From Bacteroidota bacterium (GTDB lineage Bacteria > Bacteroidota > Bacteroidia > Bacteroidales > VadinHA17): DNA of 34,990 nt. Position 1 is the stretch's first letter, and each line of letters starts with the position of its first letter. This document shows, in pieces, positions 428-32,308 of this stretch. The position numbers and the translations under genes are program-made. The stretch is from assembly GCA_003250475.1 (NCBI GenBank), contig QKGI01000042.1, forward strand, positions 1 to 34,990, given 5' to 3'. The notes beneath the pieces are model-generated. The model worked only from the letters and a program-made list of their open reading frames with translations, made no database searches and had not been told where the DNA came from.

Positions 428-2179
428 TTATATTACTTGTCCCATGCTGTCCATTGCGCCGAGGATAAAGACCAGCGGGGCATTCCAGTTAATGCATATC
501 TCGTTGGTCGAGTAGCTGCACTCGCTGTCGGTGTACGACTTTGCCGGGAAAGGAGAGCGCGGTACCGCCGGCTGGCAGTCGTTCATTACCGACGTGTTGG
601 GCCCGCCGACAAGGAAGCCGGGCACGGGCTCCGCCACTCCGTCGGCTCCCGAGGGGCGGTGGTGTATGTGCATGGGCGAGAGGCTCCCGAAGCCTGTGAC
701 GAAGCAATAACCTGTGGGGTTGGTGCCGAGAAGCCAGTTGACATCGGCCTGCACTGAGGGCATATATCTGTCGTCACCGGTAAGGAGCATGGCGATGATC
801 TTTATCAGTGCCTGGTTGGCCACATCGGAGGTGCTGCCCCATGCAAAACGGTCGAGGCTGATGCCATACGGACACCGTGCTGATTTCTCTGCCAGCTCAT
901 CGGCATAGGCTGTCAGGAGGCCGGCAGCGGCCTTACGTATCCCGCTGAAGCTATCGGGCCCGGACAGGGCCAGGGAGATGAGTCCGAGTGTCCCTGTCTG
1001 GTTCCAGGTGGGAGTGCCGGCTTTAATACCGTCGAGGAAGCCTTCTTCCGGGACGTAGCCGTCTGTTATGGCTGTCTCCGCCAGGGCCCAGAACAGCTCG
1101 TCAGACAGGTCGCCGTCGCCGTAGGCTCCGGTGCTCACATCCGCCGGCTGCCTGTATATCACATCCGGATTGGCCTCGGCCCACTGCATGGCTCTGCCGG
1201 AGGCTTCAAGGCACCTGTCGGCTAGGGCCCTGAGCTCCTCCGACGGGTCACCGGCAAAGACCCGGTATGCCATCGCCGTCAGGGCAGCAAAGTCAAGGGT
1301 CGCCGCAGTGCTCTTCATGACAACATAGCGTGGCTGTGTCGCCTCATGAGGCATCTCGAATCCGAAGAACTGCAGGTTGGTCAGCTTGTGATAGACACCG
1401 CCGTCTTCCGGGTCCTGCATGGTAAGATACCATCCCAGGTTCCATAGCAGCTCGTCAACCACGTCGGGTATCTCATTGCCGCTCTCAGGTATACTGAGAT
1501 GAAGAGACCTGCAGTATTCAGGAAAAAGCTGGTAGAAAAGCAGCAGGGTGTAGTTTGTTATGCTGCTGTTGACGATGTATTTATTATAGTCGCCTGCATC
1601 ATACCATCCTCCGGGGCTGGAGATGACAGTGCCTGCCGGCCTGCTGCCTGATGCCGCAGAGCTGTGAACGAATACTGCCGTATCGGGGTGACCGGCAGGA
1701 CGGGCCCATTCCGAGCCGTACTCTCCGGTGATCTCAAAGCCGGAACGGTTGAAGTAAAAGGATTTTATGGCAGCCTTTGTTATCTCTGTGTATACATCCC
1801 TCCCTATGCGGAATGGTGCTGAGCATGTCTCCGAGCCTTCGAGGCAAAGCCTGTATGTCCCAGGCTTCTTCAGTCCCGGGAAACCGGCTGCCCGCACCGT
1901 ATCGCCCGACAGGTCCCAGTAACGGGGTTCTCCTGCTGTGCCTCTGAAAACGACCCTGCCGTCTGTTGCATCAATAATCTCAAACCTTTCTGCATCGCTG
2001 CGTACCAGTGCCACCTTATCTGCACCGGGTTGATATCCGACCTGGTTGACAAGGATAATATCGTTGGCTGCCGGTGCCTCTACGCGTGTTTTCTTCAGCT
2101 CCGCATTGCCACAGCCAGAGGATGCCAGCAGCGCAAAAGCCGCCAGCATGAAAAGTCCCGGATTAGATTTCTTTTTCAT
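428..2179 (-). CDS. GH9 lipoprotein glycosidase (endo-beta-1,4-glucanase family)
   Basis: The product is 583 residues long. It has a lipoprotein signal with Cys at about residue 23 (LLASSGC), a CelD-type N-terminal Ig-like domain (about 38-125, starting ILVNQVGY) and a GH9 (alpha/alpha)6 catalytic domain. The catalytic-base region GGWYDAGDYNKY is at about 190-201. A His-rich motif (MHIHHRPSG) lies near 503-511, and the general acid Glu sits in STNEICINWNAPL near 560. GH9 enzymes invert beta-1,4-glucosidic bonds in cellulose, glucomannan or xyloglucan; some N-terminal-Ig members are exo-acting. The start is taken as ATG at 2179, in a TGATG overlap with the GH94 stop, which implies translational coupling; an in-frame GTG one codon upstream (2182) is the alternative. 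It is the last PUL gene of the leftward operon. As a lipoprotein it probably acts in the periplasm or at the surface, supplying cellobiose or glucose to the GH94 route. Confidence 0.9.
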   Translation of the reverse strand: MKKKSNPGLFMLAAFALLASSGCGNAELKKTRVEAPAANDIILVNQVGYQPGADKVALVRSDAERFEIIDATDGRVVFRGTAGEPRYWDLSGDTVRAAGFPGLKKPGTYRLCLEGSETCSAPFRIGRDVYTEITKAAIKSFYFNRSGFEITGEYGSEWARPAGHPDTAVFVHSSAASGSRPAGTVISSPGGWYDAGDYNKYIVNSSITNYTLLLFYQLFPEYCRSLHLSIPESGNEIPDVVDELLWNLGWYLTMQDPEDGGVYHKLTNLQFFGFEMPHEATQPRYVVMKSTAATLDFAALTAMAYRVFAGDPSEELRALADRCLEASGRAMQWAEANPDVIYRQPADVSTGAYGDGDLSDELFWALAETAITDGYVPEEGFLDGIKAGTPTWNQTGTLGLISLALSGPDSFSGIRKAAAGLLTAYADELAEKSARCPYGISLDRFAWGSTSDVANQALIKIIAMLLTGDDRYMPSVQADVNWLLGTNPTGYCFVTGFGSLSPMHIHHRPSGADGVAEPVPGFLVGGPNTSVMNDCQPAVPRSPFPAKSYTDSECSYSTNEICINWNAPLVFILGAMDSMGQVI

Positions 2180-4611
2180 CACATTGTTACTTTGATATTG
2201 TGTTCTGTCCCTTCAGGAAACAGCGGCACGATGAACGATTCAACCTTCTCTCCGTCAACTGTCATCTCCCACACACCTCTTGTCTTGTGTTCAGGGTTTA
2301 TGATCTCGATATTATAAACCGCTCCCCTGAAGAGGCGTCTCACCGTGAATCCGCCCCATTCGGGGGGTATGCACGGGTCGATCAGCAGCCCGTCATAGTC
2401 AGGACGTATCCCCAGTATATGCTGTGTCACGGCAAGGTAGCACCATGCTGCTGTGCCTGTGAGCCAGCTGTTTTTTGCTTCGCCGGGCCTGAAGGCATCC
2501 TTGCCGGCTATCATCTGTGAATAGACATAGGGCTCTGTTTTGTGCAGGTCACTGATATCCTCGAGGAATGACGGGGTGATGCGGCTGTAATAGTCGAAGG
2601 CCCTGGAGCCGTTACCTGTCATCGTCTCGGATATTATGACCCATGGGTTGTTATGGCAGAAGACCCCGGCGTTCTCCTTATACCCCTCCGGGTAGCTGGA
2701 TATCTCACCGAGGTGCAGGTTATACTCTGTAAAGGCGGGGTTGTTAAGCACTATCCCGTACTCACATGCGAGGTGCCTGTTCACCGATGCCAGCGCCTTC
2801 AGGGCCCTGCCGTCGTCGAGTCCTATACCTGCCATGATGCACATCCCCTGTGACTCGATGAAGATCTTCCCTTCACTGTTCTCCCTGCTGCCCACTTTCC
2901 TCCCGTAGAAATCCCAGGCACGCAGAAACCATTCGCCATCCCAGCCGTGAGCGTCGACAGCCCTGACCATATCGTCAATGTGTCGCTGAGCTTCATCTGC
3001 TATCTTCTCTTCGCCTCTTCTCCGGGCAATGGTGACGAAATCCGCGCCATAGAGCACGAACATGCCTGCTATGAATACTGATTCCGCCACTCCTCCCTTC
3101 TTATTCTCAGTGGTCTGGAAACTCTCGTCGGGGTTTGAAGAGAAGCAGTTCAGGTTGAGGCAGTCGTTCCAGTCGGCACGTCCTATCAGCGGCAGCCCGT
3201 GCGGTCCCAGGTTGTTGACTACATGCGTGAACGACCTGTGCAGATGGCCGAACAGGCTGGCAGTGTTTTCAGGGTCGTTATTGAAAGGCACCGTCTCATC
3301 GAGTATAGACCAGTCGCCTGTCTCTTTCAGGTAGGTAGCCACACCGAAGATGAGCCACAGCGGGTCATCGTTGAAATTACCACCTATCTCCGCATTGCCC
3401 CTCTTTGTCAGTGGCTGGTACTGGTGGTAGGCGCTGCCGTCGTCAAACTGTGTCGATGCGATATCGATGATCCTCTCCCGGGCCTGCGGGCTTATCATCT
3501 GGACATATCCCCCGAGGTCCTGGTTTGAATCACGGAAGCCCATGCCTCTTCCTATCCCTGATTCGAAATAGGAGGCGCTGCGTGACATGTGGTATGTGAC
3601 CATACACTGGTACGGGTTCCAGATATTGACCATGCGGGAGAGACGGGGGTCAGGATGGTCAAGAGTGATGACCGACAGATGACGCTCCCAGTAATCTCTC
3701 AGCCGGTCAAATGCCCTGTCCACCTTTTCGTCGGTGTCATATCTCTCTATGATGGCATGTGCCCGGCTCTTGTTTATTATACCCGGAGAGACGAATTTCT
3801 CATTGTCAGGATTTTCAACGTACCCCAGGACGAAGATGAGATTCTTCTGTTCACCCGGCTCAAGATCCACCTCGACACAATGAGACGCCACAGGAGACCA
3901 GCCGTGTGCCACGCTGTTGGATGGCCTGCCGGAGAATACGGCGTCGGGGCGGTCAAAACCGTTATACATTCCCAGGAACGCATCGCGGTCGGTATCGAAC
4001 CCGGCGACAGGCCGGTTGACCGAATAGAATGCATAATGGTTACGGCGCTCACGGTACTCTGTCTTATGGTATATGACGCTGTCCTCTACTTCGACCTCTC
4101 CTGTGGAGAAGTTACGCTGGAAATTTGTCATATCGTCCTGGGCGTTCCAGAGGCACCACTCCAGGAAAGAAAAGAGCCTGACACGGCGGGGGAGCTTTCC
4201 GTTGTTCCTGAGGGAGAGACGCTGCACTTCGCAGTTATCGCCCACAGGAACGAAGAAGAGCATCTCGGCACGCAGATCATCCTTCTCTGCCCCGATGACA
4301 GTATAACCCATACCGTGACGGCATGAGTAGTCATCGATATCGGCTTTCACCGGCTTCCACCCCGGGGACCATACCGAACCGTTATCGTTGATATAGAAAT
4401 ACTTGCCTCCGTCATCGATGGGTACGTTATTGTATCTGTAACGAGTTATCCTGCGGAGTCTTGCATCGCGGTAGAAGCTGTAACCACCTGCTGTGTTGGA
4501 GATGATTGAGAAGAAATCCCGGTTGCCCAGGTAATTTATCCAGGGGTAAGGTGTCTTATAGCGGGTGATGACATACTCCTTTGCCTTGTCATCAAAGTGG
4601 CCGAATTTCAT
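2179..4611 (-). CDS. GH94 cellobiose phosphorylase
   Basis: The product is 810 residues long, the usual size for cellobiose phosphorylase, and has no signal peptide, so it is cytoplasmic. Family marks are an N-terminal beta-sandwich (about 1-300), a helical linker, and an (alpha/alpha)6 barrel with [10 protein letters not shown] (about 357-366) and [11 protein letters not shown] (about 477-487), whose Asp-Trp-Asn-Asp carries the presumed catalytic acid. The C-terminal part holds the usual GTAAW...[11 protein letters not shown] segment (about 720-745). Reaction: cellobiose + phosphate gives alpha-Glc-1-P + Glc; related members act on cellodextrins or laminaribiose, but this sequence is closest in layout to cellobiose enzymes. 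It begins 8 bp after the SSS transporter gene and ends in a TGATG overlap with GH9, so import, cleavage and glucanase production are co-expressed. It would also handle Glc-Glc segments of glucomannan. Confidence 0.92.
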
Positions 4612-4619
4612 AGTCAGAA

Positions 4620-6494
4620 TCAGTCTTTTAGTTTATTCCACCAGGTGAACTTCAGGATAACTGTAGTAACCACCATCACGGCTGTTGCTATATAGAACTG
4701 TGTCCATTCCCTCATCACAAGGAAGACAGGGAATGCCATCAGGGATATCTGCCAGATGATACCCACGACAATATTGAACATATCGCGCAGGAAGTCCCTG
4801 TTTGCCCTGAACGAGGGATCGGCTGCCACGACCATCTTTTCCACCGGCTTCCAGAACCCCCAGGGGCGCACCTGCCTGTAGAACTTTTTCAGTGTCTCAT
4901 CATCCTCTCTTTTTGTGAGGAGGGATCCCAGGATACTGCCGGCCAGGGATATGATGAAGATTATAGGAAATGCATTCATGCTGAAGTTTTCAGTCAGCGG
5001 CCAGTTTTGCAGTATCTCCAGGTTAAGGGCAGGGAGCACCAGGGCCGCGCATACACCCGAGAGCATGCCCCAGAAGTAGCCGTAGCCGTTGAACCGCCAC
5101 CAGTACCATTTAAGCACGTTGGGAGCGGTGTAGCCACCCCACAGGGCGGCTGTGATCCACAATACCACATCGTTTATTGATGTCACAAGGAAGCCCACCA
5201 CGATGCCTGTAATAACAATCAGCAGTGAGGCGGCGTAGCTCATCCTGACATAGGTCTTTTCACTTGCGTTGGGATTGATGTACCGTTTGTAGATGTCGTT
5301 GACAAGGTAAGCGGGCGCTGCATTCACGGTAGCCGCGAAATTACTCATGAAGGCGGCTATCAATCCTGCCAGCAGGAACCCGAGCAGACCCACCGGCACA
5401 TATGTCGCCAGCACCCTCGGGAGGATACTCTCGAAGTCGGGTTCCGTCAGCGATCCTGTATATAGTTTGTTGAAGTTCACCAGGGCCAGGATAGTCAGTC
5501 CGGCAACCATGAAGTAGCGTGTCGGGTTAAGGACGACGCTTACCAGGGAGCTCATCTTAGATGCCTCCTTAGGGTTCCTTGTGGCGAGGATACGTTGCAT
5601 ATCGTAGTTGGGAGCAGGGCCGGCAGCAGATACGAAGATCCCCTTGAAGAGCATCATTATAAAGAAGAGGCCGAACATCTCATAACCGTCGGTCTTTATC
5701 CAGTCGTTGAACGAGTGCAGTTTTGGTGATGCGGAGGCGGATATAGCGTTCCAGTCGAGTCCTGTAGTGTGCCCGAACCACAGGCTCTTCCACCCTTCGG
5801 GGATGACCGCGTTGAGGGCATCGGGAGATATCTGCCTGATGGCTATGATGCCCACCGCAATGGATGCTATCGTCAGTATTCCGTACTGGATCACCTCGGT
5901 GATGACCACGCTGAACATACCTCCCTTGACCACATAGAATGTGGTGATAGCCATGAGAATGAGAGCGTAGAGGTTGACATTTATCTGGGGATGGGCCAGG
6001 AGGTATTCAGGGTCGGATACCAGGGGAGGAAGGAATGCCGCAACAAATTTCCCTATGCCCTTGAAGCCGTAGGAGAGGAATCCGATGACGCTGACAATGG
6101 CAAAGATGACCACGATAATATGCGAGAGGCTGGATGCCCGTCCGTCGCCGAAGCGGGTTTTTATCCATTCCGCACCGGTCATGACGTTTGAGCGTCTCAG
6201 CCAGGCAGAGAGGTAGACCATCAGGAATATCTGGTTGAAGACAGGCCATAGCCAGGGTATCCACAGGCTCTTCATGCCGTAAACCGACAGCCAGTATACG
6301 AGGAGCATTGTTCCGGCTATGTCAAACATGCCCGAAGCGTTCGATACGCCCAGGAAATACCAGGGGAGGCTGTTGCCTCCAAGGAAGTATGACTGTATGT
6401 TTCTCGATGCTCTTTTTGAGACCCAGTTGCCTATAAAGATGGTCGCCAGGAGATACAGTATGACAATGCCAAGGTCAATAAAATGCACATTCAT
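4620..6494 (-). CDS. Sodium/solute symporter (SSS family), probable oligosaccharide importer
   Basis: This 624-residue integral inner-membrane protein has about 13-15 hydrophobic helices. The N-terminal helix ([20 protein letters not shown]) is followed by the SSS-typical segment [18 protein letters not shown] mid-protein stretch around [27 protein letters not shown] resembles the conserved SSS TM8/TM9 region (usual form FMSTxxxxLNxxAxxxxxDxY). A long charged loop near residues 535-580 precedes the last two helices. SSS carriers couple Na+ influx to uptake of sugars, amino acids or other solutes. Its place between a sugar regulator and cellobiose phosphorylase makes beta-1,4 disaccharides (cellobiose, mannobiose, Man-Glc) the likely cargo, but this is inferred from context only. 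It lies 25 bp after the Nudix regulator gene and 8 bp before GH94. No MFS or GPH-type disaccharide transporter is present elsewhere in the window. Confidence 0.88.
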
Positions 6495-6519
6495 GGTCAG
6501 GTATGGTTATTAGGATTAA

Positions 6520-7266: not shown

Positions 7267-7300
7267 TTTATTATACCTGGTAAGAGATAAAATGACTTAG

Positions 7301-7306
7301 TGTACA
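7301..7306. promoter_or_regulatory. Candidate operator, TGTACA palindrome in the leader of the Nudix operon
   Basis: A perfect 6-bp palindrome lies 35-40 bp upstream of the regulator start codon and a few bases downstream of the predicted transcription start. It shares the half-site GTGTA (7300-7304) with the longer inverted repeat in front of susC. Assignment to the Nudix regulator is inference. Confidence 0.25.
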
Positions 7307-7317
7307 ATGTAGGAATT

Positions 7318-7348: not shown

Positions 7349-7429
7349 CAGGTGAATGAAAAAAAGCTGAAAAGGGTAGATGAGGCAGTATGGGGTAATA
7401 ATGTCTTATATTATTATATTAATGTATAA

Positions 7430-7437: not shown

Positions 7438-7507
7438 ATCATAAGTTTTTTTCAAACGGCATGTACGTGTCAGGTATACGTATCTTAAGGAAATATTTAT
7501 TAACTAT

Positions 7508-7522
7508 GTGTAATAAGTACAC
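7508..7522. promoter_or_regulatory. Candidate operator, GTGTA-N5-TACAC inverted repeat before susC
   Basis: A perfect 5+5 bp inverted repeat with a 5-bp spacer (ATAAG) has its centre 18 bp upstream of the proximal -7 box at 7533. It therefore falls between the -33 and -7 positions of that promoter. Binding there would block susCD transcription, consistent with a repressor such as the adjacent Nudix regulator. The link is inferred from position only. Confidence 0.35.
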
Positions 7523-7532
7523 GAAGGAATGT

Positions 7533-7540: not shown

Positions 7541-7647
7541 ATCGCTTGGGCACTTGACTAATCAAATTATTACAATAAAGAGACAAAATAGTATCAGTGC
7601 CACGCTGCGAAGAAGGGTTAACTTTAAAAACCTAAAACTGTACAGCT

Positions 7648-10600
7648 ATGCAAAAAAAACTCTTAAGACTAACTTTTCTTATTTGTCTGGCAGCTGTCAT
7701 GTCATCCTCAGTCCTTTATGCACAGCAGAGGACTGTTACCGGAAGGGTAACGGATGACACAAATGCTGCCTTACCCGGTGCCTCGATAGTGGTAAAGGGA
7801 ACGACAATAGGAACTGCTTCGGATCTCAACGGGAATTTCACCATCCAGGTACCTTCTGAAGCAACAACGCTGGTTGTTTCATTCATAGGGATGGACACGA
7901 AAGAAGTGCCAATCACTGCAGGACCAATGGAAATCACACTATCGATGTCAGCTGAGGAGGTTGATGCTGTGGTGGTGATCGGATATGGTACCATCAGGAG
8001 ATCGGAAGTGACATCTGCCATCGCCTCCGTGAAGACGGAGGAGATAAAAGACCTGGTGGTCACCGGTGTTGACCAGGCCCTTCAGGGCAAGATAGCCGGG
8101 TTGCAGGTAATGAACAACAGCGGACAGCCCGGCGGCGGTGTGTCAGTCAGGGTAAGGGGTATCACCTCTATAAACAGTAATGATCCCCTGATTGTTATTG
8201 ATGGTGTTCCCTTCACGGATAACATGGTTGAGAACACCGGTTATGACGGCCTTGGCGGCTCTGACGGGCAGACACAAAACAGTTTCCTTGCTACACTGAA
8301 CCCCAATGACATTGAGTCTATAGATGTATTGAAGGATGCCTCCGCGCAGGCTATCTACGGGTCACAGGCAGCTAACGGAGTACTCCTGATAACCACGAAA
8401 AAGGGTAAGGCCGGAGACGGGAAGGTCACCTATGATTTTTCCTACGGGCTGCAGGATGTGACAAGGAAGCTTGATGTCATGAATCTCCGCCAGTTTGCAG
8501 AATACCAGAACAGTGTGATAGCCGAGCTGGGATCTGGTTATACCCCGACAGAGGAGTTTGCCGATCCTTCCCTCCTGGGTGAAGGGACCGACTGGCAGGA
8601 CGCAATCTTCAGGCAGGGATATACCATGGATCACCAGCTGGGAATATCAGGCGGAAAGGAGAACACTAGCTACTACTTCTCCGCAGGTTATTATGATCAG
8701 AAAGGGATCCTGATAGGTTCTGATTTCAAACGTTACTCAACCAGGTTCAATCTTGACAGCAAGGTAAAGAGCTGGCTGAAGGCCGGTGTAAGCTCCAATA
8801 TCACCAGGAGCATTCAGAACGTGACACTGGCAGACGCAGCCGAGAGTACCATATGGTGGTCGACATTGCAGAACCCGCTGATCCCCGTAAAGAACCTCGA
8901 CGGCACCTGGGCAGGTAACTACTCTGTAGGCGGGTACAACTACACTGCAGACAACCCGGTAGCCACGAGCAACAGCAGGGGTAACAAGAGTGTCAACAGC
9001 CAGATATTCGGCAACATATATGCTGAAATAATCTTCCTGGAGGGGCTCTCTCTCAGAAATGAATTCTCTTACCAGATAGGGTTGCAGAACAACACTGCAT
9101 TTCAGTATGGAGACAATATAGGTACCCGGTCGCTGCAGGCACAGCTCTATGACAGCCGCAGCAACTCTTACTACTACGCAGTAAGAAATTACCTTAACTA
9201 TGCCAGGACACTGGGAAAACATAAGCTCAACTTTACCGGTGGCCATGAGGCTCAGTATTCGTACTGGGAGACTGTCAGCGGAAAGAAGGTTGACCTTCAG
9301 AATGACATCCTTGACCTGAATGCCGGGAGCACTGACAAGACCACATGGGATCTTACCGGAGGCAAGGGCGACTGGGCGATGGAGTCATATTTCGTAAGAG
9401 GAAACTACACCTTCGATGAACGGTATTCTCTATCGCTGAGCTACAGGGCTGACAAATCATCGAACTTCGGTCCCAACAGAAAATGGGGATTCTTCCCCGG
9501 GGCATCAGTAGGGTGGACCGTCACCAACGAGAAGTTCGCAGCCAACTGGACAAATGTGATGAACTATATGAAGATCAGGCTTGGTGCCGGGTCGGTGGGT
9601 AACCAGAACCTGCCCAGCGGTGCACCCAGTCCGCCATATACTTCCAACGTCAACTTCTGGCCGGGGCCGGTGGGCTTCGGACAGGTGGGCACAGCCTCGA
9701 CCAACTTCATCGCCGGGATTGCCAATCCCGATCTTAGCTGGGAGTCTGTAATAACATACAACGGAGGTGTTGACCTGGGCTTCCTGGGTGGAAAAATAGA
9801 CCTGACGGTTGACGTCTACAAGAAGGTAACCTCCAGGATGCTCCTGTTCAGCACCGGCCCTGCCCTGCTCGGTATAGGCGATGCCTGGAACGACCTGAAG
9901 GCACCGATAGGTAATGTCGGACAGATGACTAATACCGGTGTTGACGTGGGCCTGGTGACACGGAATATTTCAAAACCCAATTTCTCATGGAATACCTCGG
10001 TCGTCTTCTCACATTACAAGAACGTACTCAACAAGCTGATCAATGAGTCATCCTCTATTGACGGTAAGTTATACTATGACAATTACCTGATCACCCATAC
10101 TGTGCCGGGCTACGCCGTAGGCACCTTCTGGGGGCTCAAGACAGACGGCCTCTTCCGTACCCCGGCTGAGCTGGCTAACTCCTATCCGCAGTTCGGATCG
10201 GCAGTAGCCGAGAACGAAACATGGCTCGGCGACGTGAGGTTTAAAGATATCAACGATGACCAGGTCATTGATTCAAAGGATCTCACCTTTATCGGAAGCC
10301 CGATACCCGACTTCACTTTTGGCTTTACAAACAACTTCAGGTACAGGGACTTTGACCTGTCGGTCTTCCTGCAGGGAAGCTACGGGGCCGAGATATACAA
10401 CTTCATGAAATGGCAGCTTGAGAGGATGAATAACGTCTATTACAACCAGTCCACTGCCGTCATGGACCGCTATACGGCCACCAACACCGGCGGTGAACTT
10501 CCGCGTTTCTCCAACACCAACACCAACAACACGGCCATGTCAGACCGGTATGTTGAAGACGGTTCCTATGTCCGCGTACAGAATATTACACTCGGTTACA

Positions 10601-10806
10601 GGCTGCCAAAATCGCTTATCAGCAAGGTGCAGATAAACAACCTCAGGGTGTACGTAACGGTACAGAACCTTTACACATTCACAAAGTACTCCGGTTACGA
10701 TCCTGAAGTAGGCTCATACAATAACAGTATTAAGCTTATGAACGTTGATGCAGGTCACTATCCCAATCCGCGAACCTTTATGGGCGGAGTGAGTGTTGAG
10801 TTTTAA
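7648..10806 (+). CDS. SusC-like TonB-dependent outer-membrane oligosaccharide transporter
   Basis: The product is 1052 residues long, a normal SusC size. It has a signal peptide (about 1-25, ending LYAQ) and a CarboxypepD_reg-like Ig domain (about 28-100, VTGRVTDDTNAALPGASIVV). A TonB-box-like segment (DAVVVIGYGT, about 106-115) leads into a plug domain with LQGKIAGLQV, VRVRGITS and DPLIVIDGVPF motifs (about 140-190). The rest is a 22-strand barrel ending in Phe (GGVSVEF). No STN domain is present, so it should transport rather than signal through an anti-sigma factor. It pairs with the SusD lipoprotein encoded 12 bp downstream to import hemicellulose oligosaccharides in a TonB-driven way. 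It is the first gene of the rightward operon. An overlapping 67-codon frame at 7554-7757 is a shadow. Confidence 0.97.
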   Translation: MQKKLLRLTFLICLAAVMSSSVLYAQQRTVTGRVTDDTNAALPGASIVVKGTTIGTASDLNGNFTIQVPSEATTLVVSFIGMDTKEVPITAGPMEITLSMSAEEVDAVVVIGYGTIRRSEVTSAIASVKTEEIKDLVVTGVDQALQGKIAGLQVMNNSGQPGGGVSVRVRGITSINSNDPLIVIDGVPFTDNMVENTGYDGLGGSDGQTQNSFLATLNPNDIESIDVLKDASAQAIYGSQAANGVLLITTKKGKAGDGKVTYDFSYGLQDVTRKLDVMNLRQFAEYQNSVIAELGSGYTPTEEFADPSLLGEGTDWQDAIFRQGYTMDHQLGISGGKENTSYYFSAGYYDQKGILIGSDFKRYSTRFNLDSKVKSWLKAGVSSNITRSIQNVTLADAAESTIWWSTLQNPLIPVKNLDGTWAGNYSVGGYNYTADNPVATSNSRGNKSVNSQIFGNIYAEIIFLEGLSLRNEFSYQIGLQNNTAFQYGDNIGTRSLQAQLYDSRSNSYYYAVRNYLNYARTLGKHKLNFTGGHEAQYSYWETVSGKKVDLQNDILDLNAGSTDKTTWDLTGGKGDWAMESYFVRGNYTFDERYSLSLSYRADKSSNFGPNRKWGFFPGASVGWTVTNEKFAANWTNVMNYMKIRLGAGSVGNQNLPSGAPSPPYTSNVNFWPGPVGFGQVGTASTNFIAGIANPDLSWESVITYNGGVDLGFLGGKIDLTVDVYKKVTSRMLLFSTGPALLGIGDAWNDLKAPIGNVGQMTNTGVDVGLVTRNISKPNFSWNTSVVFSHYKNVLNKLINESSSIDGKLYYDNYLITHTVPGYAVGTFWGLKTDGLFRTPAELANSYPQFGSAVAENETWLGDVRFKDINDDQVIDSKDLTFIGSPIPDFTFGFTNNFRYRDFDLSVFLQGSYGAEIYNFMKWQLERMNNVYYNQSTAVMDRYTATNTGGELPRFSNTNTNNTAMSDRYVEDGSYVRVQNITLGYRLPKSLISKVQINNLRVYVTVQNLYTFTKYSGYDPEVGSYNNSIKLMNVDAGHYPNPRTFMGGVSVEF

Positions 10807-23852: not shown

Positions 23853-26282
23853 ATGAAAGGCAGAAACAGGTTTTTTCAACTGACGGCAGCTATTACGATA
23901 GCAGCTGCTCTGGCTGGTTGTTCGAAACAGGAGCCACGCATCAGGTCAGACTTCAACGACGGGTGGAAGTTCCTCCTTACTGACATAGATGGCGCGTGGG
24001 AAACAGATTTTGATGACAGCGGATGGAGATTGCTAAATCTGCCTCACGACTGGAGCATAGAAGGCAGTTTTAGTGAAGACAATCCTGCCTCACCAGGCGG
24101 CGGCGCACTGCCCGGGGGTATTGGATGGTACCGCAAGGCATTCACAGTCAGCTATGCCGACAGGGAGAAGCGGGTGATTGTGGAATTTGACGGCATCTAC
24201 CGCAACAGTGAGGTGTGGATTAACGGTGAATACCTTGGCAAATGGCCATACGGCTACAGCTCTTTCAGCTATGACCTGACCCCATACCTCAGGTATGGCG
24301 ATGACGGGAATGTCATTGCCGTAAAGGTTGACAACTCGCAACAGCCCAACTCAAGATGGTATTCTGGTTCGGGTATCTACCGCAACGTATGGCTTGTGAA
24401 AACGGAGAAGATAGCTGTTGACCACTGGGGCACCTTTGTTACTACTCCGGAAGTAAGCAGTGGGGCAGCACTGCTAAGGGTGGCCACGCAGGTGAAGAAC
24501 AGCACGGGCAACAGTACGGAGATAAGGCTGAAGACCAGGGTGTATGATCCCGAAAACAGGAGGGTTGCATCTGCAGATACAGACATGATCGAGATCAGTG
24601 GTGACGGCACCGCTGTCACACAGGAGATGAAGATAAGGAAGCCCCGCCTGTGGTCGGTGGAGGAACCGGATCTTTACAGGGTGGTGACTGAGGTCTGGTC
24701 CGGACAGAAACTGACCGACAGGTATGAGACGACGACAGGCATACGGTCATTCACTTTTGATAACGAGAAAGGATTCATACTGAACGATAAGCCTGTCAAG
24801 ATACTTGGTGTCTGCAATCATCATGACCTGGGTTGCCTGGGTGCAGCCGTAAACACCCGCGCCATAGAGAGACAGCTTCAGATACTGAAAGAGATGGGGT
24901 GCAATGGTATACGTACTTCCCATAACCCTCCTGCCCCCGAGCTGCTGGATCTGTGTGACCGCATGGGTTTCATCGTAATGGATGAGGCGTTCGATATGTG
25001 GAAGGTGGGGAAGACCGATTACGACTACCACCTTGATTTCGACGAGTGGCATAAAAAGGATCTGGAGGCGATGGTGCTTCGCGACAGAAACCATCCCTCC
25101 GTATTTATCTGGAGCATAGGCAACGAGGTGATGGAGCAGTGGGAGAGAGATGGCAGCGGTGAAGCTATCGCCGGCGAGCTCGCCGGTATCGTCAGGGCGC
25201 TGGATGACACACGGCCTCTGACCTCGGGATGCAATGACCCGACACCGGGGAATCCCGTGATAGCCTCGGGTGCCCTTGACCTTGTCGGGTTTAATTATAT
25301 TGACTCCCTGTGGACGCGTTTTCCCATAGCCTTTCCGGGAGGGAAGTATATCGGTACTGAGACCACCTCGGCGCTTGCCACCCGTGGCAGTTATGATATG
25401 CCATCCGATATCGTACGCCGCTGGCCAGTAAGGTGGGAGCAGCCCTATATGGATCTCAATGCTGACTATACATGCTCGTCATATGATAACTGTTCGGCAC
25501 CGTGGGGTACCACGCACCAGGACTCGTGGAGGCTCATCAGGGATAATGATTTCCTGGCAGGCATGTATATATGGACCGGCTTCGATTACCTTGGAGAACC
25601 CACACCATACTGGTGGCCGGCACGCAGTTCCTATTTCGGGATAGTTGACCTTGCCGGTTTTCCTAAAGACGCATACTACATGTACCAGAGCGAGTGGACA
25701 GATAAACCTGTGCTTCATATCTTCCCCCACTGGAACTGGACACCCGGTCAGACAGTGGATGTATGGGCATACACAAACTGTGATGAGGTGGAGCTCTTCA
25801 TCAACGGTATCTCCCAGGGTAAGAAGGTGAAGAGCGAGCCGGACCTCAGCCTGGTATGGAGAGTGCAATATGAAGAAGGAACACTGTCAGGTGTCGGATA
25901 CAAAGAGGGTATCGAGATCATGCGCGAGGAACTGAAGACAGCCGGGAAACCTGCAGCACTTGCATTGTCACCTGACAGATCTGAGCTCACGGCTGACGGG
26001 TCGGATCTTTCATTCATCACGGTAACTGTGGTGGACGAAGAGAATACTCCTGTTCCCTATGCAGACAACATGATCAGCTTCTCAGTACAGGGACCGGCAA
26101 CGATAGCCGGTGTCGACAACGGGTGCCAGACAAGCATGGAGCCGTTTCAGGCCGATCACCGGAAAGCCTTTAACGGAAAATGCCTGGTGGTGCTGAAGGC
26201 AGGCAAAGAAAAGGGAGAGATCACGGTGACGGCATCATCAGAAGGCCTTCCCGATGAATCATGCAGCCTGACAATCAGATAA
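23853..26282 (+). CDS. GH2 lipoprotein, beta-galactosidase-like
   Basis: The product is 809 residues long. It is a lipoprotein (Cys23, AALAGC) with a GH2 sugar-binding domain (about 30-185), an Ig-like domain (about 190-297), a TIM barrel (about 300-600), a DUF4982-type Ig domain and a C-terminal Big_1-like Ig domain (about 710-809). Acid/base Glu425 is in IWSIGNEVMEQW and nucleophile Glu503 in YIGTETTSA. The GVCNHHDLGCLGAAV segment (319-333) favours the beta-galactosidase branch over beta-mannosidases, which are built differently. In known xyloglucan loci similar GH2 enzymes remove terminal beta-Gal. Here it would act on beta-galactosyl side chains before GH31. Its 3' end overlaps the convergent AraC gene by 8 bp; it is the last gene of the rightward operon's first block. 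Confidence 0.9.
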   Translation: MKGRNRFFQLTAAITIAAALAGCSKQEPRIRSDFNDGWKFLLTDIDGAWETDFDDSGWRLLNLPHDWSIEGSFSEDNPASPGGGALPGGIGWYRKAFTVSYADREKRVIVEFDGIYRNSEVWINGEYLGKWPYGYSSFSYDLTPYLRYGDDGNVIAVKVDNSQQPNSRWYSGSGIYRNVWLVKTEKIAVDHWGTFVTTPEVSSGAALLRVATQVKNSTGNSTEIRLKTRVYDPENRRVASADTDMIEISGDGTAVTQEMKIRKPRLWSVEEPDLYRVVTEVWSGQKLTDRYETTTGIRSFTFDNEKGFILNDKPVKILGVCNHHDLGCLGAAVNTRAIERQLQILKEMGCNGIRTSHNPPAPELLDLCDRMGFIVMDEAFDMWKVGKTDYDYHLDFDEWHKKDLEAMVLRDRNHPSVFIWSIGNEVMEQWERDGSGEAIAGELAGIVRALDDTRPLTSGCNDPTPGNPVIASGALDLVGFNYIDSLWTRFPIAFPGGKYIGTETTSALATRGSYDMPSDIVRRWPVRWEQPYMDLNADYTCSSYDNCSAPWGTTHQDSWRLIRDNDFLAGMYIWTGFDYLGEPTPYWWPARSSYFGIVDLAGFPKDAYYMYQSEWTDKPVLHIFPHWNWTPGQTVDVWAYTNCDEVELFINGISQGKKVKSEPDLSLVWRVQYEEGTLSGVGYKEGIEIMREELKTAGKPAALALSPDRSELTADGSDLSFITVTVVDEENTPVPYADNMISFSVQGPATIAGVDNGCQTSMEPFQADHRKAFNGKCLVVLKAGKEKGEITVTASSEGLPDESCSLTIR

Positions 26283-27165
26283 AGACCCTGGTCCCCTGGT
26301 CATAGCTCTCCCTGAGTTCGCGGGGAGTGCATCCCTTCTTCTTCCTGAATATCCTGTTGAAGTTGGAGATGTTGTTAAAGCCGCATGAGTATGCTATCTC
26401 AGCTATGGTCTTGGTGGTGGAGATAAGCATCCGCGAGGCGCTGCCCAGGCGCACCTCGGTGACGCAGTCTATGAAGGTCATGCCTGTCCTCTGCTTAAAA
26501 AAGCGGCTGAATGCCGATTCTGTCATACTCGCTATGCGGGCAGCTTCACCAAGCGAGATCTGCCTGTCAAACGATGTGTGAATAAATCCCATTACCTTCT
26601 CAATCCGCCGGCTGTTGTAGGAGAAGACCTCGGTATCGCTGAAGCCTGAGTCAGACAGTATCCGGTAATCCCTTGAGATGGAGAGGTCATGGAGGATACT
26701 CATCAGCTCCAGGACCGAATCAAAACCCTGCTTCTTCCCCAGGCTCATTATGCGTGGTTCCAGGCGTTCTACTGTCTCATGGGCAAAGAGGATACCCCTG
26801 AGCGATCTCCGTAGCATGTTACGGATGAAATTCAGCTGGTTCTTCTGGAGGAACTTTTCGTCAAAGAAATCCTTGTGAAACTGTATGGTTATCTCCTCGA
26901 CCTGGTTTCTGGCAAAGCCCGTGCCGAACCATCCGTGTGGCAGTCCCGGACCCACCAGCGCAAGTTCCAGGTCTCCTATTTCCTCAACATGATCACCAAT
27001 GATCCTTCTGGCACCACGGGCGTTCTTAACGAAATTGAGCTCTATCTCGTCGTGGTAATGCAGGGGAAAGTCAAACTCCGACTTCGACCTGTAGAAATAG
27101 GTGAAGCAGTCAGACTTTGTCAGCGGGGTTATCTCCCGCAGTATATTATCATGCATGTTTTCCAT
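26275..27165 (-). CDS. AraC-family transcriptional regulator with cupin-type sensor domain
   Basis: The product is 296 residues long. The N-terminal cupin-like effector domain (about 20-110) has FPLHYHDEIELNFV (33-46), the usual sugar-binding fold of AraC regulators. The C-terminal double helix-turn-helix (about 190-290) carries ISLGEAARIASMTESAFSRF (203-222) and the family signature IAEIAYSCGFNNISNFNRIF (254-273), followed by KKGCTPRELR. It is transcribed against the GH2 gene (tail-to-tail, 8-bp overlap) and divergently from the GH5-GH26-GH130-epimerase operon. It is therefore the prime candidate activator of that third block. Start ATG 27165 is chosen; Met4 (27156) is equally possible. The ligand may be a manno- or gluco-oligosaccharide, by inference. 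Confidence 0.92.
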   Translation of the reverse strand: MENMHDNILREITPLTKSDCFTYFYRSKSEFDFPLHYHDEIELNFVKNARGARRIIGDHVEEIGDLELALVGPGLPHGWFGTGFARNQVEEITIQFHKDFFDEKFLQKNQLNFIRNMLRRSLRGILFAHETVERLEPRIMSLGKKQGFDSVLELMSILHDLSISRDYRILSDSGFSDTEVFSYNSRRIEKVMGFIHTSFDRQISLGEAARIASMTESAFSRFFKQRTGMTFIDCVTEVRLGSASRMLISTTKTIAEIAYSCGFNNISNFNRIFRKKKGCTPRELRESYDQGTRVFI

Positions 27166-27185
27166 TTGCCGGCATATGATTATTT

Positions 27186-27193
27186 CAAAGTTA
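27186..27193 (-). promoter_or_regulatory. Candidate -7 box of the araC-type gene
   Basis: The minus strand reads TAACTTTG (27193 to 27186), matching TAnnTTTG about 20 bp before the regulator ATG. No TTG is present at -33 spacing, so support is partial. Confidence 0.3.
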
Positions 27194-27423
27194 TTAATTA
27201 TATGTAAAAATCATACACTCTCTTTGGCAATTTCAGTCCACAACGAAGTATCATGTAACCAATATGATAGTAACGACAGGTAATGTTTCGTGCCGTAAGT
27301 GTCCGCAGCCCGGGTAAAAAAGTATTATATGCATGAATTCTTACTACATGGATTGCAGGCATAATGACATTAAAGTATCATGATTTAAAAGAATGGTATT
27401 ACTCGTCAGCGGGTGTGAATAAC

Positions 27424-27431
27424 TAATTTTG
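27424..27431 (+). promoter_or_regulatory. Candidate -7 box of the GH5-GH26-GH130-epimerase operon
   Basis: TAATTTTG matches TAnnTTTG and ends 21 bp before the GH5 ATG. No TTG lies at the usual distance, which would fit an activator-dependent promoter served by the divergent AraC regulator. The remaining 287-bp gap (27166-27452) shows no gene and no clear long palindrome. Confidence 0.3.
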
Positions 27432-27452
27432 ATTAAGATCGTAATAAGCCGC

Positions 27453-28757
27453 ATGATAAGACAGGTATTGGCCGGGCTGCTTTTGACAATAGCCCTGGCA
27501 GGTTGCGGAGGCAACCGGAATTTTGAATATGTGACTGTAGAGGACGGTATCTTCCGGCTCGCCGGTGAACCCTATTATTTCATCGGTGCAAACTACTGGT
27601 ACGGTGCTCTCCTGGGCAGCCCCGGGGAATACGGGGACCGCGACAGGCTGCTGGCGGAGCTCGATCACATGAAGAGCATAGGAATAGATAACCTGCGTGT
27701 GATGGTAGGGCCGGAAGGGCCAGATAATGAACCCTTCCGCGTTACTCCGGCGCTGCAGGTCGCGCCGGGCACCTATAACGAGGAGCTTCTTGACGGCCTT
27801 GATTACCTGCTCGCCGAGATGGGCAGGCGGGGCCTGCATGCCATACTTTTTCTTAACAACGCATGGGACTGGAGCGGTGGCTATTCGCAATATCTTAACT
27901 GGAACGGGTACGGCCCTATCCCAAACCCCAACGTCCCTCCAAATACATGGCACCAGTTTATGAGCTATTCCGGGCAGTTTAATGCATGTGAACCATGTAT
28001 CGGAATGTTCGAGGATTTTATCAGGTTCATACTGGGACGTACCAACAGGTATACCGGGTTGAAATATACTGACGATCCTGCCATCATGACCTGGGAGATA
28101 GCCAACGAACCGAGGGCGTTTTCTGACGAGAACATCCCGGCCTTTGAGTCGATGATAAAACGCATTGCCGGCCTTATCCAGGAGCTTGACAAAAACCATC
28201 TCGTCACCACCGGCACGGAAGGCAGGCACGGTTGTGAACAGCAGATGGACCTCTTTGAAAGGATACATGCCGACCCTGACATCGACTACCTCGTGATGCA
28301 TATATGGCCAAAAAACTGGGGCTGGCTTGACATAACGGATATACAGGGAACACTGGCATCGAGCATCGAAAAAACCAACCAGTATATTGATGACCACCTG
28401 GAGGTGGCGGAGCGCCTTAACAAGCCCATTGTGATCGAGGAGTTCGGGTTACCGCGCGATCACCATGGATATTCCCCTGATGAGCCTACAGCCTGCCGCG
28501 ATGCCTTCTACAATAACGCTTTTTCACAGGTAATCTATAACGCCCTCAGGCTTGGGCCGCTGGCGGGGGCAAATATATGGGCCTATTCAGGCGAAGGCAG
28601 GGCAACAGAAGGACATACTTACTGGCTGCCGGGCGATGATTACCTGGGCGATCCGCCACAGGAGGAGCAGGGACTGAATTCGGTCTTTAACACTGACACT
28701 ACGATAGACCTGATATCCGGTTATACCCGGAGCCTGGATGACGAATTAAAAAGATAG
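27453..28757 (+). CDS. GH5 (subfamily 7-like) beta-mannanase lipoprotein
   Basis: The product is 434 residues long from ATG 27453, which begins a proper lipoprotein signal (MIRQVLAGLLLTIALAGC, Cys18). The in-frame TTG at 27429 would add eight residues and is less likely. The GH5 barrel shows LAGEPYYFIGANYWYGA near 36-52 and the acid/base Glu219 in TWEIANEPRAF. HIWPKNWGW lies near 283-291, and the nucleophile Glu330 in PIVIEEFGLP. The ANYWYGA and IANEPR...EEFGLPRDHHGYSP pattern is that of GH5_7 mannan endo-1,4-beta-mannosidases. It cuts beta-mannan or glucomannan chains at the surface or in the periplasm. It is the first gene of the third block, 7 bp before GH26. Confidence 0.9.
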   Translation: MIRQVLAGLLLTIALAGCGGNRNFEYVTVEDGIFRLAGEPYYFIGANYWYGALLGSPGEYGDRDRLLAELDHMKSIGIDNLRVMVGPEGPDNEPFRVTPALQVAPGTYNEELLDGLDYLLAEMGRRGLHAILFLNNAWDWSGGYSQYLNWNGYGPIPNPNVPPNTWHQFMSYSGQFNACEPCIGMFEDFIRFILGRTNRYTGLKYTDDPAIMTWEIANEPRAFSDENIPAFESMIKRIAGLIQELDKNHLVTTGTEGRHGCEQQMDLFERIHADPDIDYLVMHIWPKNWGWLDITDIQGTLASSIEKTNQYIDDHLEVAERLNKPIVIEEFGLPRDHHGYSPDEPTACRDAFYNNAFSQVIYNALRLGPLAGANIWAYSGEGRATEGHTYWLPGDDYLGDPPQEEQGLNSVFNTDTTIDLISGYTRSLDDELKR

Positions 28758-28764
28758 CACGGCA

Positions 28765-29889: not shown

Positions 29890-29909
29890 GGATAACCGCA
29901 ACCAGTATC

Positions 29910-31094
29910 ATGGATAATTTCGCAATCCGCCTCGCGGGGCTGAAAGAGGAGCACGAGGCACTTATCACGCGCAGCAATAAAAAGATAAAACCGGGGAACG
30001 GCATATTCGAGAGATATGAATATCCCGTGCTCACCGGAGCACATGCCCCTCTTGAATGGCGTTATGATCTCAATCCTGCAACCAACCCCTACCTGATGGA
30101 GCGGTTTGGTATCAATGCGGCATTCAACGCCGGTGCGATGAAATTTGAAGGGGAATACATTCTGGCCGTAAGAGTGGAAGGGCTTGACAGGAAATCGTTC
30201 TTTGCCATTGCCGGGAGCCCCAACGGCGTTGACAACTTCCGCTTCAGGGAGTTTCCGGTCACCATGCCGGAGACAGCTGACCCTGATATCAATGTATATG
30301 ATATGAGGCTGACAAGACATGAGGACGGCTGGATCTACGGCATCTTCTGCACAGAGCGCAAAGATCCGGCTGCTATGCCCGGCGACATGTCCTCGGCAAT
30401 AGCCTCGGCAGGGATAGCACGCACACATGACCTGGAGAACTGGGAACGTCTGCCCGACCTGGTATCAGACAGTCAGCAGAGGAATGTGGTGCTTCACCCG
30501 GAGTTTGTCGATGGCAGTTATGCCCTTTATACAAGACCCCAGGAGGGCTTCATCGATGCAGGGAGCGGAAGCGGCATAGGATGGGCGCTGGTGAAAGACA
30601 TCACTAAAGCGGTGATCCTCCCGGGTGATGAGAGAATAATAAACTTCAGGCACTACCATACGATCAAGGAGCTGAAGAACGGCGAAGGTCCACATCCGAT
30701 AAAAACCCGGGAGGGATGGCTCCATATGGCTCATGGTGTGAGAGGATGTGCGGCAGGACTGCGTTATGTTCTCTACCTCTATATGACCGCCCTGGATGAT
30801 CCGTCAAGGGTGATAGCGGAGCCGGGAGGATACTTCATGGCCCCGGCAGGGGAGGAACGCACCGGCGATGTCTCCAATGTGCTCTTCTCCAGCGGCTGGA
30901 TAGCCGATGAGGATGATACCGTTTATATCTACTATGCATCGTCTGACACAAGGATGCACGTTGCAGTCTCTTCCATAGACAGGCTTGTGGATTATTGCCT
31001 GAACACCCCGGCCGACGGATTTCGTTCCGCGGCATCAGTGAAGACGGTGAACGCAATAATAACCCGGAACAGGGAATACCTGGCAGGAAGATGA
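29910..31094 (+). CDS. GH130 4-O-beta-D-mannosyl-D-glucose phosphorylase
   Basis: The product is 394 residues long and has no signal peptide, so it is cytoplasmic. The five-bladed propeller family GH130 is recognisable from [20 protein letters not shown] (28-47), [19 protein letters not shown] (59-77), [12 protein letters not shown] (124-135; Asp131 is the presumed catalytic acid) and [14 protein letters not shown] (about 275-288). Length and motifs fit subfamily 1. Reaction: Man-beta-1,4-Glc + phosphate gives alpha-Man-1-P + Glc. It takes the epimerised mannobiose made by the next gene, whose ATG overlaps this stop (ATGA), a strong sign of coupled expression. Confidence 0.94.
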
Positions 31095-32308
31095 CAGAGG
31101 ACACTCAACGGCTGCTGGAGGAGATGAGGGCGGAAGCGACGGAGGAGCTGACGCATAACATCATGCCCTACTGGATAAAGAGGATGCCTGACAACAGACG
31201 GGGAGGTTTCTACGGCAGGATAGACGGCCATGACAACATCATAGAGGATGCGCCCCGGGGTGCAATACTTAACGCCCGCATCTTATGGAGCTTCTCGGCC
31301 GCGTACATCACCGTAAGGGACCCGGTTTATCTTGGGATGGCAACAAGAGCCCGCGATTATATCCTGGAGCATTTTTTCGACGACAAACACGGGGGTACCT
31401 ACTGGAGCCTTGACAGCAGCGGCAAACCGCTGGAGACAAAGAAGCAGATCTATTCCCTTGCTTTCTTCATCTATGCACTGACATGGTATCATATGGCCAC
31501 AGGCGACAGGGAGTCGCTTGACAGGGCCATCAGTCTCTTCCGGCTCATTGAAAAATACAGCTTTGACAGTGACCATGAGGGTTATCTTGAGGCTTTCACG
31601 CGCACATGGGAAGAGATTGCCGACCTGCGCCTGAGCGAGAAGGATGCCAACGAGAAGAAGACGATGAATACCCACCTTCATCTTCTCGAGGCTTATACAA
31701 GCCTGTTCAGGGTATGGCCTGATCCTCTCCTGAGGAACCGGCTGGCCGGCCTTGTCAGGATCTTCACTGAAAAGATAGTGGACCCGGTAACATCCCATCT
31801 GAACCTCTTCTTTGATGAGGAGTGGCATTGCCGCTCCACGCTTGTCTCCTATGGTCATGACATCGAAGCTTCATGGCTGCTGCTTGAGGCTGCCGGCGCA
31901 CTGGGTGAAGGTGACAGCGTGCGGGGCACTGTTCTCAGGATAGCAGCTGCAGCACATGAGGGCCTGGCGGAAGACGGTAGTCTCTTTTACGAGAGGGATG
32001 ATGCTGCGGGTCATTTTGACCGCGACAGACACTGGTGGGTACAGGCCGAAGCCGTGGCAGGGTTCATGAACACCTGGCAGCTGAGTGGCGACGCCGGCTG
32101 GCTGGAACTGGCATACTCGGTTTTTAAATATATCAGGACACACCTTATCGACAGTAAGAACGGAGAATGGTACTGGAGCATAAGGGCTGACGGCACCGTC
32201 AACCGTGACGAAGATAAGGCAGGGTTCTGGAAATGCCCTTACCATAACAGCAGGATGTGCCTCGGGATAATGACAGGGATACAGGGTCCTGACGGCAAAA
32301 AGCGCTGA
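31091..32308 (+). CDS. Cellobiose 2-epimerase (AGE family)
   Basis: The product is 405 residues long from the ATG that overlaps the GH130 stop; a frame extending upstream to 30995 exists, but no realistic signal precedes it. The (alpha/alpha)6-barrel AGE fold has [12 protein letters not shown] (61-72), [12 protein letters not shown] (192-203), [11 protein letters not shown] (254-264, His256) and [11 protein letters not shown] (315-325). [12 protein letters not shown] (379-390, His385) completes the set; the two His fit the general acid/base pair of the family. It is cytoplasmic. It interconverts the reducing-end Glc and Man of beta-1,4 disaccharides (mannobiose to Man-Glc, cellobiose to Glc-Man), feeding GH130 and, through cellobiose, GH94. 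It is the last PUL gene, followed by a strong terminator. Confidence 0.94.

What the first reader, a model, noticed from the sequence alone, without database searches (positions are those of the whole stretch)
2179..32308. Dual phosphorolysis plus epimerase could consume all four beta-1,4 Man/Glc disaccharides
The locus encodes three cytoplasmic enzymes: GH94 (cellobiose phosphorylase), GH130 (Man-Glc phosphorylase) and cellobiose 2-epimerase. Known Bacteroides mannan loci have only the last two. Combined, Man-Man is epimerised to Man-Glc for GH130 and Man-Glc is used directly. Glc-Glc goes to GH94, and Glc-Man can be epimerised back to cellobiose for GH94. That would make a closed ATP-saving scheme for the random disaccharides of glucomannan. 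Presence of the genes is seen, reactions are family knowledge, the combined circuit is inference.
Basis: partly seen in the sequence, partly recalled or inferred. Interest (0 to 1): 0.75.

Follow-up and report, generated by a model that had tools for sequence, protein, structure and literature searches.

The report
Shared phosphorylase route for hemicellulose sugars
A bacterium's plant-fibre gene cluster carries two phosphate-using enzymes and one sugar-flipping enzyme that together could consume every mixed mannose/glucose disaccharide; the idea is sound but was already proposed for another bacterium in 2025, so this is mainly a well-conserved new example.

Summary
The three enzymes are really there: GH94 cellobiose phosphorylase (2179-4611, -), GH130 mannosyl-glucose phosphorylase (29910-31094, +) and cellobiose 2-epimerase (31091-32308, +). 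The arrangement is conserved in sister species and one other genus, and GH94 sits beside GH130 and/or the epimerase in a few differently arranged loci, including one operon-like run (GH130 > transporter > GH94 > epimerase). Best reading: the epimerase turns the reducing sugar into glucose; the non-reducing sugar then decides which phosphorylase acts. (1) Not new: a 2025 Segatella copri paper tested the epimerase and GH130 and proposed GH94 for cellobiose and Glc-Man; GH94 in mannan loci was reported before. (2) Not mannan-only: an alpha-xylosidase-type GH31, xyloglucanase-type GH9 and a xyloglucan-binding-domain surface protein mean cellobiose may come from xyloglucan too. (3) Two arms, two regulators: a candidate NrtR operator (GTGTA-N5-TACAC) lies between the GH94 arm and SusC, none before the GH130/epimerase operon. 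An exo-mannosidase and other hydrolases mean the route need not be closed. Nothing was assayed.

The parts
428..2182 (-). GH9 glucanase, lipoprotein-like N-terminus; start overlaps the GH94 end by 4 bases (GTG start) or 1 (next codon, ATG)
   Evidence: Pfam 264 bits; best solved relative BoGH9A xyloglucan endo-glucanase 421 bits
2179..4611 (-). GH94 cellobiose phosphorylase, cytoplasmic
4620..6494 (-). SSS sodium:solute symporter, the only inner-membrane sugar-type transporter among the 20 ORFs scanned; likely disaccharide importer (inference)
   Evidence: Pfam 91 bits; a relative lies beside GH94 in other loci and beside the epimerase in L083
6520..7266 (-). NrtR/AraR-type winged-helix regulator
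   Evidence: Pfam PF21906, PF19368
7508..7522 (.). Candidate NrtR operator GTGTA-N5-TACAC in the divergent NrtR/SusC stretch
   Evidence: present in the window and 10 of 10 relatives with this stretch; 12 of 12 exact sites in 80 GH94 loci lie within 500 bp upstream of an NrtR gene, 0.55 expected in all
7648..10806 (+). SusC-like TonB-dependent transporter
10819..12432 (+). SusD-like protein
12435..13670 (+). SGBP-B-like surface protein with the xyloglucan-binding (XBD) family domain
   Evidence: PF18329 164 bits; PbSGBP-B 145 bits
13694..15808 (+). TIG-repeat protein with weak XBD match (28.5 bits)
15911..19180 (+). CBM35-GH26 endo-mannanase type with an unassigned C-terminal region and a T9SS sorting tail
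19190..22051 (+). GH31 of the PA14-bearing alpha-xylosidase group
   Evidence: BoGH31A 1049 bits, Xyl31A (2xvg) 885 bits
22106..23836 (+). AXE1/CE7-type acetyl esterase
23853..26282 (+). GH2 beta-galactosidase, GalB type
   Evidence: NF041463 955.5 bits, above its cut-off of 900
26275..27165 (-). AraC-family regulator
27429..28757 (+). GH5, exo-beta-mannosidase type, lipoprotein-like N-terminus
   Evidence: Man5A 365 bits, exo-beta-1,4-mannosidase 267 bits
28765..29889 (+). GH26 nearest to 4zxo (381 bits) and CjMan26C (275 bits), lipoprotein-like N-terminus
29910..31094 (+). [quoted passage not shown]
31091..32308 (+). Cellobiose 2-epimerase, cytoplasmic; 4-base overlap with GH130

Best explanation
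A locus for mixed beta-1,4 hemicellulose (glucomannan plus xyloglucan-type glucan) with a shared cytoplasmic disaccharide step. Surface and periplasmic GH26, GH9, GH31, GH2, CE7 and GH5 enzymes cut and strip the polymers to disaccharides, which the SSS symporter brings in. Mannanase cuts leave X-Man, glucanase cuts leave X-Glc. The epimerase acts on the reducing sugar and turns X-Man into X-Glc. GH130 then takes Man-Glc (giving Man-1-P + Glc) and GH94 takes Glc-Glc (giving Glc-1-P + Glc). Shown here: genes, family assignments, conserved order, candidate operator. From published work on homologues: epimerase and GH130 reactions. Inferred: import, flux, shared use, energy saving, and that GH94 here uses cellobiose.
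For: Enzyme identities. In the survey of 117 family genomes, GH94, GH130, epimerase and GH31 lie on one contig in 8 of the 18 window-genus genomes with this GH94 and in 1 of 2 of genus g5 (counted by hand); gene order read in ten relatives. G092 lacks SusC through GH26 and GH2 but has GH94, GH130 and epimerase. GH130_1 occurs in 31 of 42 family genomes with this GH94 versus 13 of 75 without (Fisher 1.7e-9; within g13 11 of 22 versus 1 of 39-40, about 1.5e-5, hand counts, relatedness not corrected). Other layouts: L115 GH130>MFS_2>GH94>epimerase with a 4-base GH94/epimerase overlap; L106 MFS_2>GH94>epimerase; L089 (Spirochaete) GH94>epimerase-like; L083 and L058 GH94 and GH130 converging with a GH10 between; G096/L040 GH130>MFS_2>GH94>GH9. 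Published reactions of homologues.
Against: In genus g13, 0 of 11 genomes with both GH94 and GH130 have them on one contig. Only 4 of 73 named GH94 loci outside the window genus have GH130 (>=60%) or epimerase (>=50%) in the fetched flanks. Of three class genomes with this GH94, two have GH130 elsewhere in the genome and one none. The NrtR-SSS-GH94 arm also stands without mannan genes in the fetched flanks (L042, L043, L053, L068, L072, L091). GH94 is tied to GH31 and GH9, with no mannan gene recognised, in L046. The GH130 operon lacks the operator. A lipoprotein-like exo-mannosidase could hydrolyse Man-Man and Man-Glc before import. The epimerase falls below NCBIfam's EpiA cut-off (396 of 800 bits). 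No activity or expression data were seen for this organism.
Confidence: 0.6

Rival explanations
1. Two neighbours, two jobs: an autonomous NrtR-SSS-GH94-GH9 cellobiose/xyloglucan module sits beside a classical GH26-GH130-epimerase mannan module; they share an outer-membrane system but not disaccharide traffic.
For: The NrtR-(SSS)-GH94(-GH9) arm recurs without mannan genes in the fetched flanks; relatives of NrtR in 21, SSS in 17 and GH9 in 14 of 80 GH94 loci. The operator goes with NrtR. L046 has GH31>GH94>GH9 and no mannan gene recognised. The GH5-GH26-GH130-epimerase operon lies next to its own AraC gene and lacks the operator.
Against: GH94 and epimerase (or epimerase-like) genes are adjacent in L115, L106 and L089, and GH130-MFS_2-GH94 in L040/G096. 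Both arms are kept in the deletion variant G092. The operator lies before SusC, whose run of genes includes the GH26 mannanase.
Confidence: 0.27
2. Mainly hydrolytic: the lipoprotein-like GH5 mannosidase and exported GH3 enzymes make monosaccharides outside the cytoplasm, and GH94/GH130 are minor salvage enzymes.
For: GH5 closest to exo-beta-mannosidases; seven GH3 matches in the genome, five with signal-like N-termini by eye.
Against: No GH3 among the 20 window ORFs scanned; GH94, GH130 and epimerase are all present in the 8 of 10 relatives whose fetched stretch spans both arms (the other two, G103 and G096, are cut by contig ends).
Confidence: 0.1
3. GH94 acts directly on Glc-Man as well as cellobiose, so the epimerase is not needed for that branch.
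For: The S. [quoted passage not shown] broad acceptor use by cellobiose phosphorylases is recalled knowledge.
Against: GH94>epimerase adjacency in three other loci suggests that the two work together.
Confidence: 0.2

Closest known systems
Segatella copri glucomannan system (PMC12704710, PNAS 2025; passages seen)
   Same: GH26, CE7, GH130 and an adjacent epimerase; epimerase and GH130 tested; GH94 up on glucomannan in mice and proposed to break down cellobiose and Glc-Man
   Different: There GH94 is listed as a non-PUL gene; here it is in the same locus, beside xyloglucan-type genes and an NrtR regulator
Dromedary fosmid 26H3, and Dysgonomonas mossii PUL13 as described there (PMC5877837; passages seen)
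   Same: CE7, GH5, GH26, GH130 and GH94 on one fosmid; PUL13 is said to resemble it and to contain GH3 and GH94
   Different: Authors exclude GH3/GH94 from the mannan locus; the word epimerase does not occur in the text; no circuit in the passages seen
B. cellulosilyticus/B. uniformis CBM112 mannan PULs (PMC13357471; passages seen)
   Same: GH94 in 42% and GH130_1 in 36% of CBM112 PULs
   Different: B. uniformis PUL9 has GH94, B. cellulosilyticus PUL32 has GH130_1; the passages do not discuss joint use, and the word epimerase does not occur
Mannan pathways of B. fragilis, B. ovatus and Roseburia intestinalis (PMC6385246; passages seen)
   Same: Epimerase plus GH130_1
   Different: Roseburia removes glucose with GH3; GH94 does not occur in the text
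Bacteroides ovatus xyloglucan locus (recalled; relatives seen as solved structures)
   Same: GH31 alpha-xylosidase, GH9, XBD surface protein, GH2
   Different: Here no GH43 or GH3 was recognised, and the GH5 is closest to exo-mannosidases

Membership tests
GH94 cellobiose phosphorylase | Full-length GH94 domains, nearer to cellobiose phosphorylases than to other GH94 specificities | tested here: met
   1308 bits vs 439 chitobiose, 156 for 4zle (cellobionic acid phosphorylase, recalled), 83 cellodextrin, 53 laminaribiose
GH94 cellobiose phosphorylase | Glu/Tyr/Lys of subsite +1 | tested here: inconclusive
   GEIxxYPxGYKEN stretch shared with 3qde in the alignment, but the role and numbering of these residues are recalled from another enzyme
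GH94 cellobiose phosphorylase | Phosphorolysis of cellobiose | not testable with these tools
   needs assay
GH130_1 mannosyl-glucose phosphorylase | Groups with characterised MGPs | tested here: met
   641 and 517 bits to the two solved MGPs, at most 99 to other GH130
Cellobiose 2-epimerase | Nearer to cellobiose 2-epimerases than to N-acylglucosamine 2-epimerases | tested here: met
   408 vs 163 bits; EpiA 396 vs AGE 101 bits
Cellobiose 2-epimerase | Reaches NCBIfam EpiA equivalog cut-off | tested here: not met
   396 of 800 bits; the L115 and L083 relatives also fail it (399, 390), so the cut-off may simply be narrow
CE + GH130_1 mannan pathway | Mannanase, epimerase and MGP in one locus | tested here: met
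   by sequence:
Xyloglucan utilisation locus | alpha-xylosidase-type GH31, xyloglucanase-type GH9, XBD surface protein | tested here: met
   (sequence nearness only)
Xyloglucan utilisation locus | Endo-xyloglucanase GH5, GH3 and side-chain GH43/GH95 (recalled list) | tested here: not met
   GH5 is exo-mannosidase-like; no GH3, GH43 or GH95 recognised among the 20 ORFs scanned

The most novel reading that the evidence does not exclude
A general reducing-end-normalising module: one epimerase makes every beta-1,4 Man/Glc disaccharide end in glucose, and two phosphorylases then sort by the non-reducing sugar. Differing gene layouts suggest that it was put together several times in different lineages, and in this Bacteroidales group it serves glucomannan and xyloglucan from one locus, with the NrtR (cello-) regulator gating the shared outer-membrane importer.
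Probability: 0.35. Interest if true: 0.55.

Novelty: new member of a known kind. Interest (0 to 1): 0.38.

Why it matters
If the circuit works, one epimerase and two phosphorylases would let a fermenter spend one ATP less per disaccharide on all four Man/Glc disaccharides. The conserved loci (and the operon-like run in L115) give compact, testable enzyme sets for a step that the S. copri work left as speculation. The candidate operator makes the regulation testable too.

Tried and rejected
Considered and set aside: GH94 as cellobionic acid, cellodextrin, chitobiose or laminaribiose phosphorylase (scores); epimerase as N-acylglucosamine epimerase. A single-sequence fold of the C-terminal part of 15911-19180 gave pLDDT 29.6 and is useless; Pfam at E<=5 gave only weak unrelated names; plasmid tblastn gave 3 hits at 26-29% identity, two named cellulose-binding. 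A shared AraC site (AGTATCA) before SusC and GH5 is only a visual hint: window matches are near chance (3 found, 1.5 expected). In the window the operator pattern with one mismatch allowed is not itself rare (1 found, 0.54 expected), and in the whole genome the exact palindrome has 2 sites against 1 for the reversed control pattern; its weight comes from conservation and position. The second genome site (contig C90) lies between a methylase-like and a transporter-like gene (named by eye) and is taken as chance. A search for papers on the GH31 active site found none. Class survey: this GH94 in 4 of 395 genomes at E<=1e-150, own included; GH130 was run only on the other three of these, not on the whole sample, so there is no class baseline for GH130. 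Of the 36 GH130-bearing genomes, 11 GH130 contigs were checked by length: one (L045/G518) has the length of the GH94 contig; there the genes would lie about 45 kb apart, too far to count. The rest were judged by coordinates alone.

Claims on novelty rest on paper searches, 72 of an open-licence library only. Percent identities to the solved enzymes were not computed; bit scores are given.
Full report
WHAT IS THERE. The window holds a divergent hemicellulose locus. Minus arm: NrtR-type regulator (6520-7266), SSS symporter (4620-6494), GH94 (2179-4611), GH9 (428-2182). Plus strand: SusC, SusD, XBD surface protein, TIG protein, CBM35-GH26, GH31, CE7, GH2; then AraC on the minus strand; then GH5, GH26, GH130, epimerase. 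GH130 and epimerase overlap by four bases, GH94 and GH9 by one to four depending on the start chosen, which suggests coupled translation (inference).

ENZYME IDENTITY. GH94 scores 1308 bits over its full length to cellobiose phosphorylase 3qde, with other GH94 activities at 439 bits or less. GH130 scores 641 bits to the mannosyl-glucose phosphorylase 3was. The epimerase scores 408 bits to a cellobiose 2-epimerase against 163 for the best N-acylglucosamine 2-epimerase, though it misses NCBIfam's EpiA cut-off.

NOT MANNAN ALONE. GH31 is closest to BoGH31A alpha-xylosidase (1049 bits), GH9 to the xyloglucanase BoGH9A, and the surface protein carries the xyloglucan-binding domain family; GH2 passes the GalB beta-galactosidase cut-off. 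On the mannan side are CBM35-GH26, GH26 and an exo-mannosidase-type GH5. So cellobiose for GH94 may come from glucomannan, xyloglucan or both. GH94 lies between GH31 and GH9, with no mannan gene recognised, in a Sedimentisphaerales locus (L046), and GH31 (partial, contig edge) and GH2 relatives lie upstream of GH94 in L079. Conversely GH31 sits directly beside GH130 in two g13 genomes (L140, L141) and beside the GH5 mannosidase in two g15 genomes (L142, L143). Why an alpha-xylosidase-type enzyme keeps company with mannan genes is unexplained; its activity is not tested.

CONSERVATION. In 117 genomes of the family, this type of GH94 (>=60% identity) is in 42: 18 of 22 in the window genus, 2 in g5, 22 in g13. 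It lies on one contig with GH130 and epimerase in 8 of 18, 1 of 2 and 0 of 11 (the 11 g13 genomes with both GH94 and GH130) (counted by hand). Several of the remaining window-genus cases end at contig edges and cannot be judged. One search read ten relatives (11 contig stretches): full order kept in G093, G094, G095, G100, G111; G107 has a more distant SusC/D (42/30% identity); G103 ends inside GH26; G096 is split over two contigs; G012 lacks matches for three genes; G092 lacks SusC through GH26 and GH2 but keeps GH94, GH31, GH130 and epimerase. The genome-level tie of GH94 and GH130 is strong (31 of 42 versus 13 of 75; within g13 11 of 22 versus 1 of 39-40, g13's size inferred from handle order), but relatedness and completeness were not corrected for. 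In 50 genomes chosen from the 73 GH94 loci outside the window genus, 36 have GH130_1 at E<=1e-80; there was no matched control. In a class sample only 4 of 395 genomes (own included) have this GH94 at E<=1e-150; of the other three, two have GH130 on another contig or about 2.9 Mb away, one has none.

OTHER LAYOUTS. Of 80 named GH94 loci (a list cut at the best 80), 7 belong to the window genus. Of the other 73, 4 have GH130 (>=60%) or epimerase (>=50%) in the fetched flank: L058, L083, L106, L115; many flanks are short. L089 adds an epimerase-like neighbour at 31% (205.7 bits to EpiA, 94.3 to AGE); a 29% GH130 match in L097 was not counted. L115 (Candidatus Symbiothrix) is the cleanest: GH26, GH5, CE7-like, GH5, GH130, MFS_2 transporter, GH94, epimerase, GH3 on one strand, with a GH94/epimerase overlap of four bases. 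L040 (G096) has GH130, MFS_2, GH94, GH9 in a row. I read these as separate assemblies because the layouts differ; no tree was made.

REGULATION. The stretch between NrtR and the next plus-strand gene (SusC; GH31 in G092) holds GTGTA-N5-TACAC (window 7508-7522) in the window and in all 10 relatives aligned. Over the 80 loci (1.43 Mb) there are 12 exact sites, against a Markov expectation of 0.55 (at most 3 in 20 runs); all 12 lie within 500 bp upstream of an NrtR homologue, in 11 of the 21 loci that have one. Six of these 11 loci are window-genus loci, five of them the same contigs as relatives already aligned; L044, L053, L069, L105 and L113 are outside the genus. The other 10 NrtR loci have only imperfect sites (one or two mismatches). 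This is good evidence for the regulator's operator and places GH94 and the SusC operon under one candidate switch.

PRIOR ART. [quoted passage not shown] there GH94 is outside the PULs. PMC5877837 (passages) shows GH94 near a CE7-GH5-GH26-GH130 cluster and says that D. mossii PUL13, which resembles it, contains GH94. PMC13357471 (passages) gives GH94 in 42% and GH130_1 in 36% of CBM112 PULs. PMC6784887 and PMC9860051 (passages) describe GH130/epimerase mannan loci; the passages place no GH94 in them. Hence: a new member of a known kind. What this work adds is the conserved single-locus arrangement, the L115 and G096 gene runs, the xyloglucan-type partners and the candidate operator.

VERDICT. 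It is neither shown nor first proposed here.

Noticed in passing
window 17381-18940: C-terminal region of the GH26 protein matches no Pfam family; by eye it has WEIGNE and TEYN motifs like clan GH-A enzymes (recalled); weak tblastn hits to Streptomyces/Nonomuraea records, two named cellulose-binding.
   Followed up: partly
L140, L141, L142, L143: Alpha-xylosidase-type GH31 directly beside GH130 (two g13 genomes) or beside the GH5 mannosidase (two g15 genomes): an unexplained tie between GH31 and mannan genes. In L140 and L141 an MFS_2 transporter lies between GH130 and epimerase, and an aldose 1-epimerase gene follows further on.
   Followed up: partly
L040 / G096:C52: A second locus with a GH130 copy 67% identical to the window's, followed by MFS_2, GH94 and GH9 in a sister species; GH94 seems to have joined a different mannan operon, though the contig holding the main locus ends where its GH94 would lie.
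   Followed up: partly
G092:C54: Deletion-like variant lacking SusC/D, surface proteins, GH26 and GH2 while keeping both phosphorylases, epimerase, GH31 and the operator.
   Followed up: yes
window 32485-34988: Three ORFs after the epimerase without Pfam assignment (one weak fn3 hint), found in the same order in G092 and G094.
   Followed up: no
L046:16087-18273: A lacto-N-biose phosphorylase-family gene (GH112 type, recalled) near the GH31>GH94>GH9 set in a Sedimentisphaerales locus.
   Followed up: no
window 7587-7596 and 27371-27380: Possible shared AGTATCA element before SusC and before GH5, maybe an AraC site; not clearly above chance in the window.
   Followed up: partly
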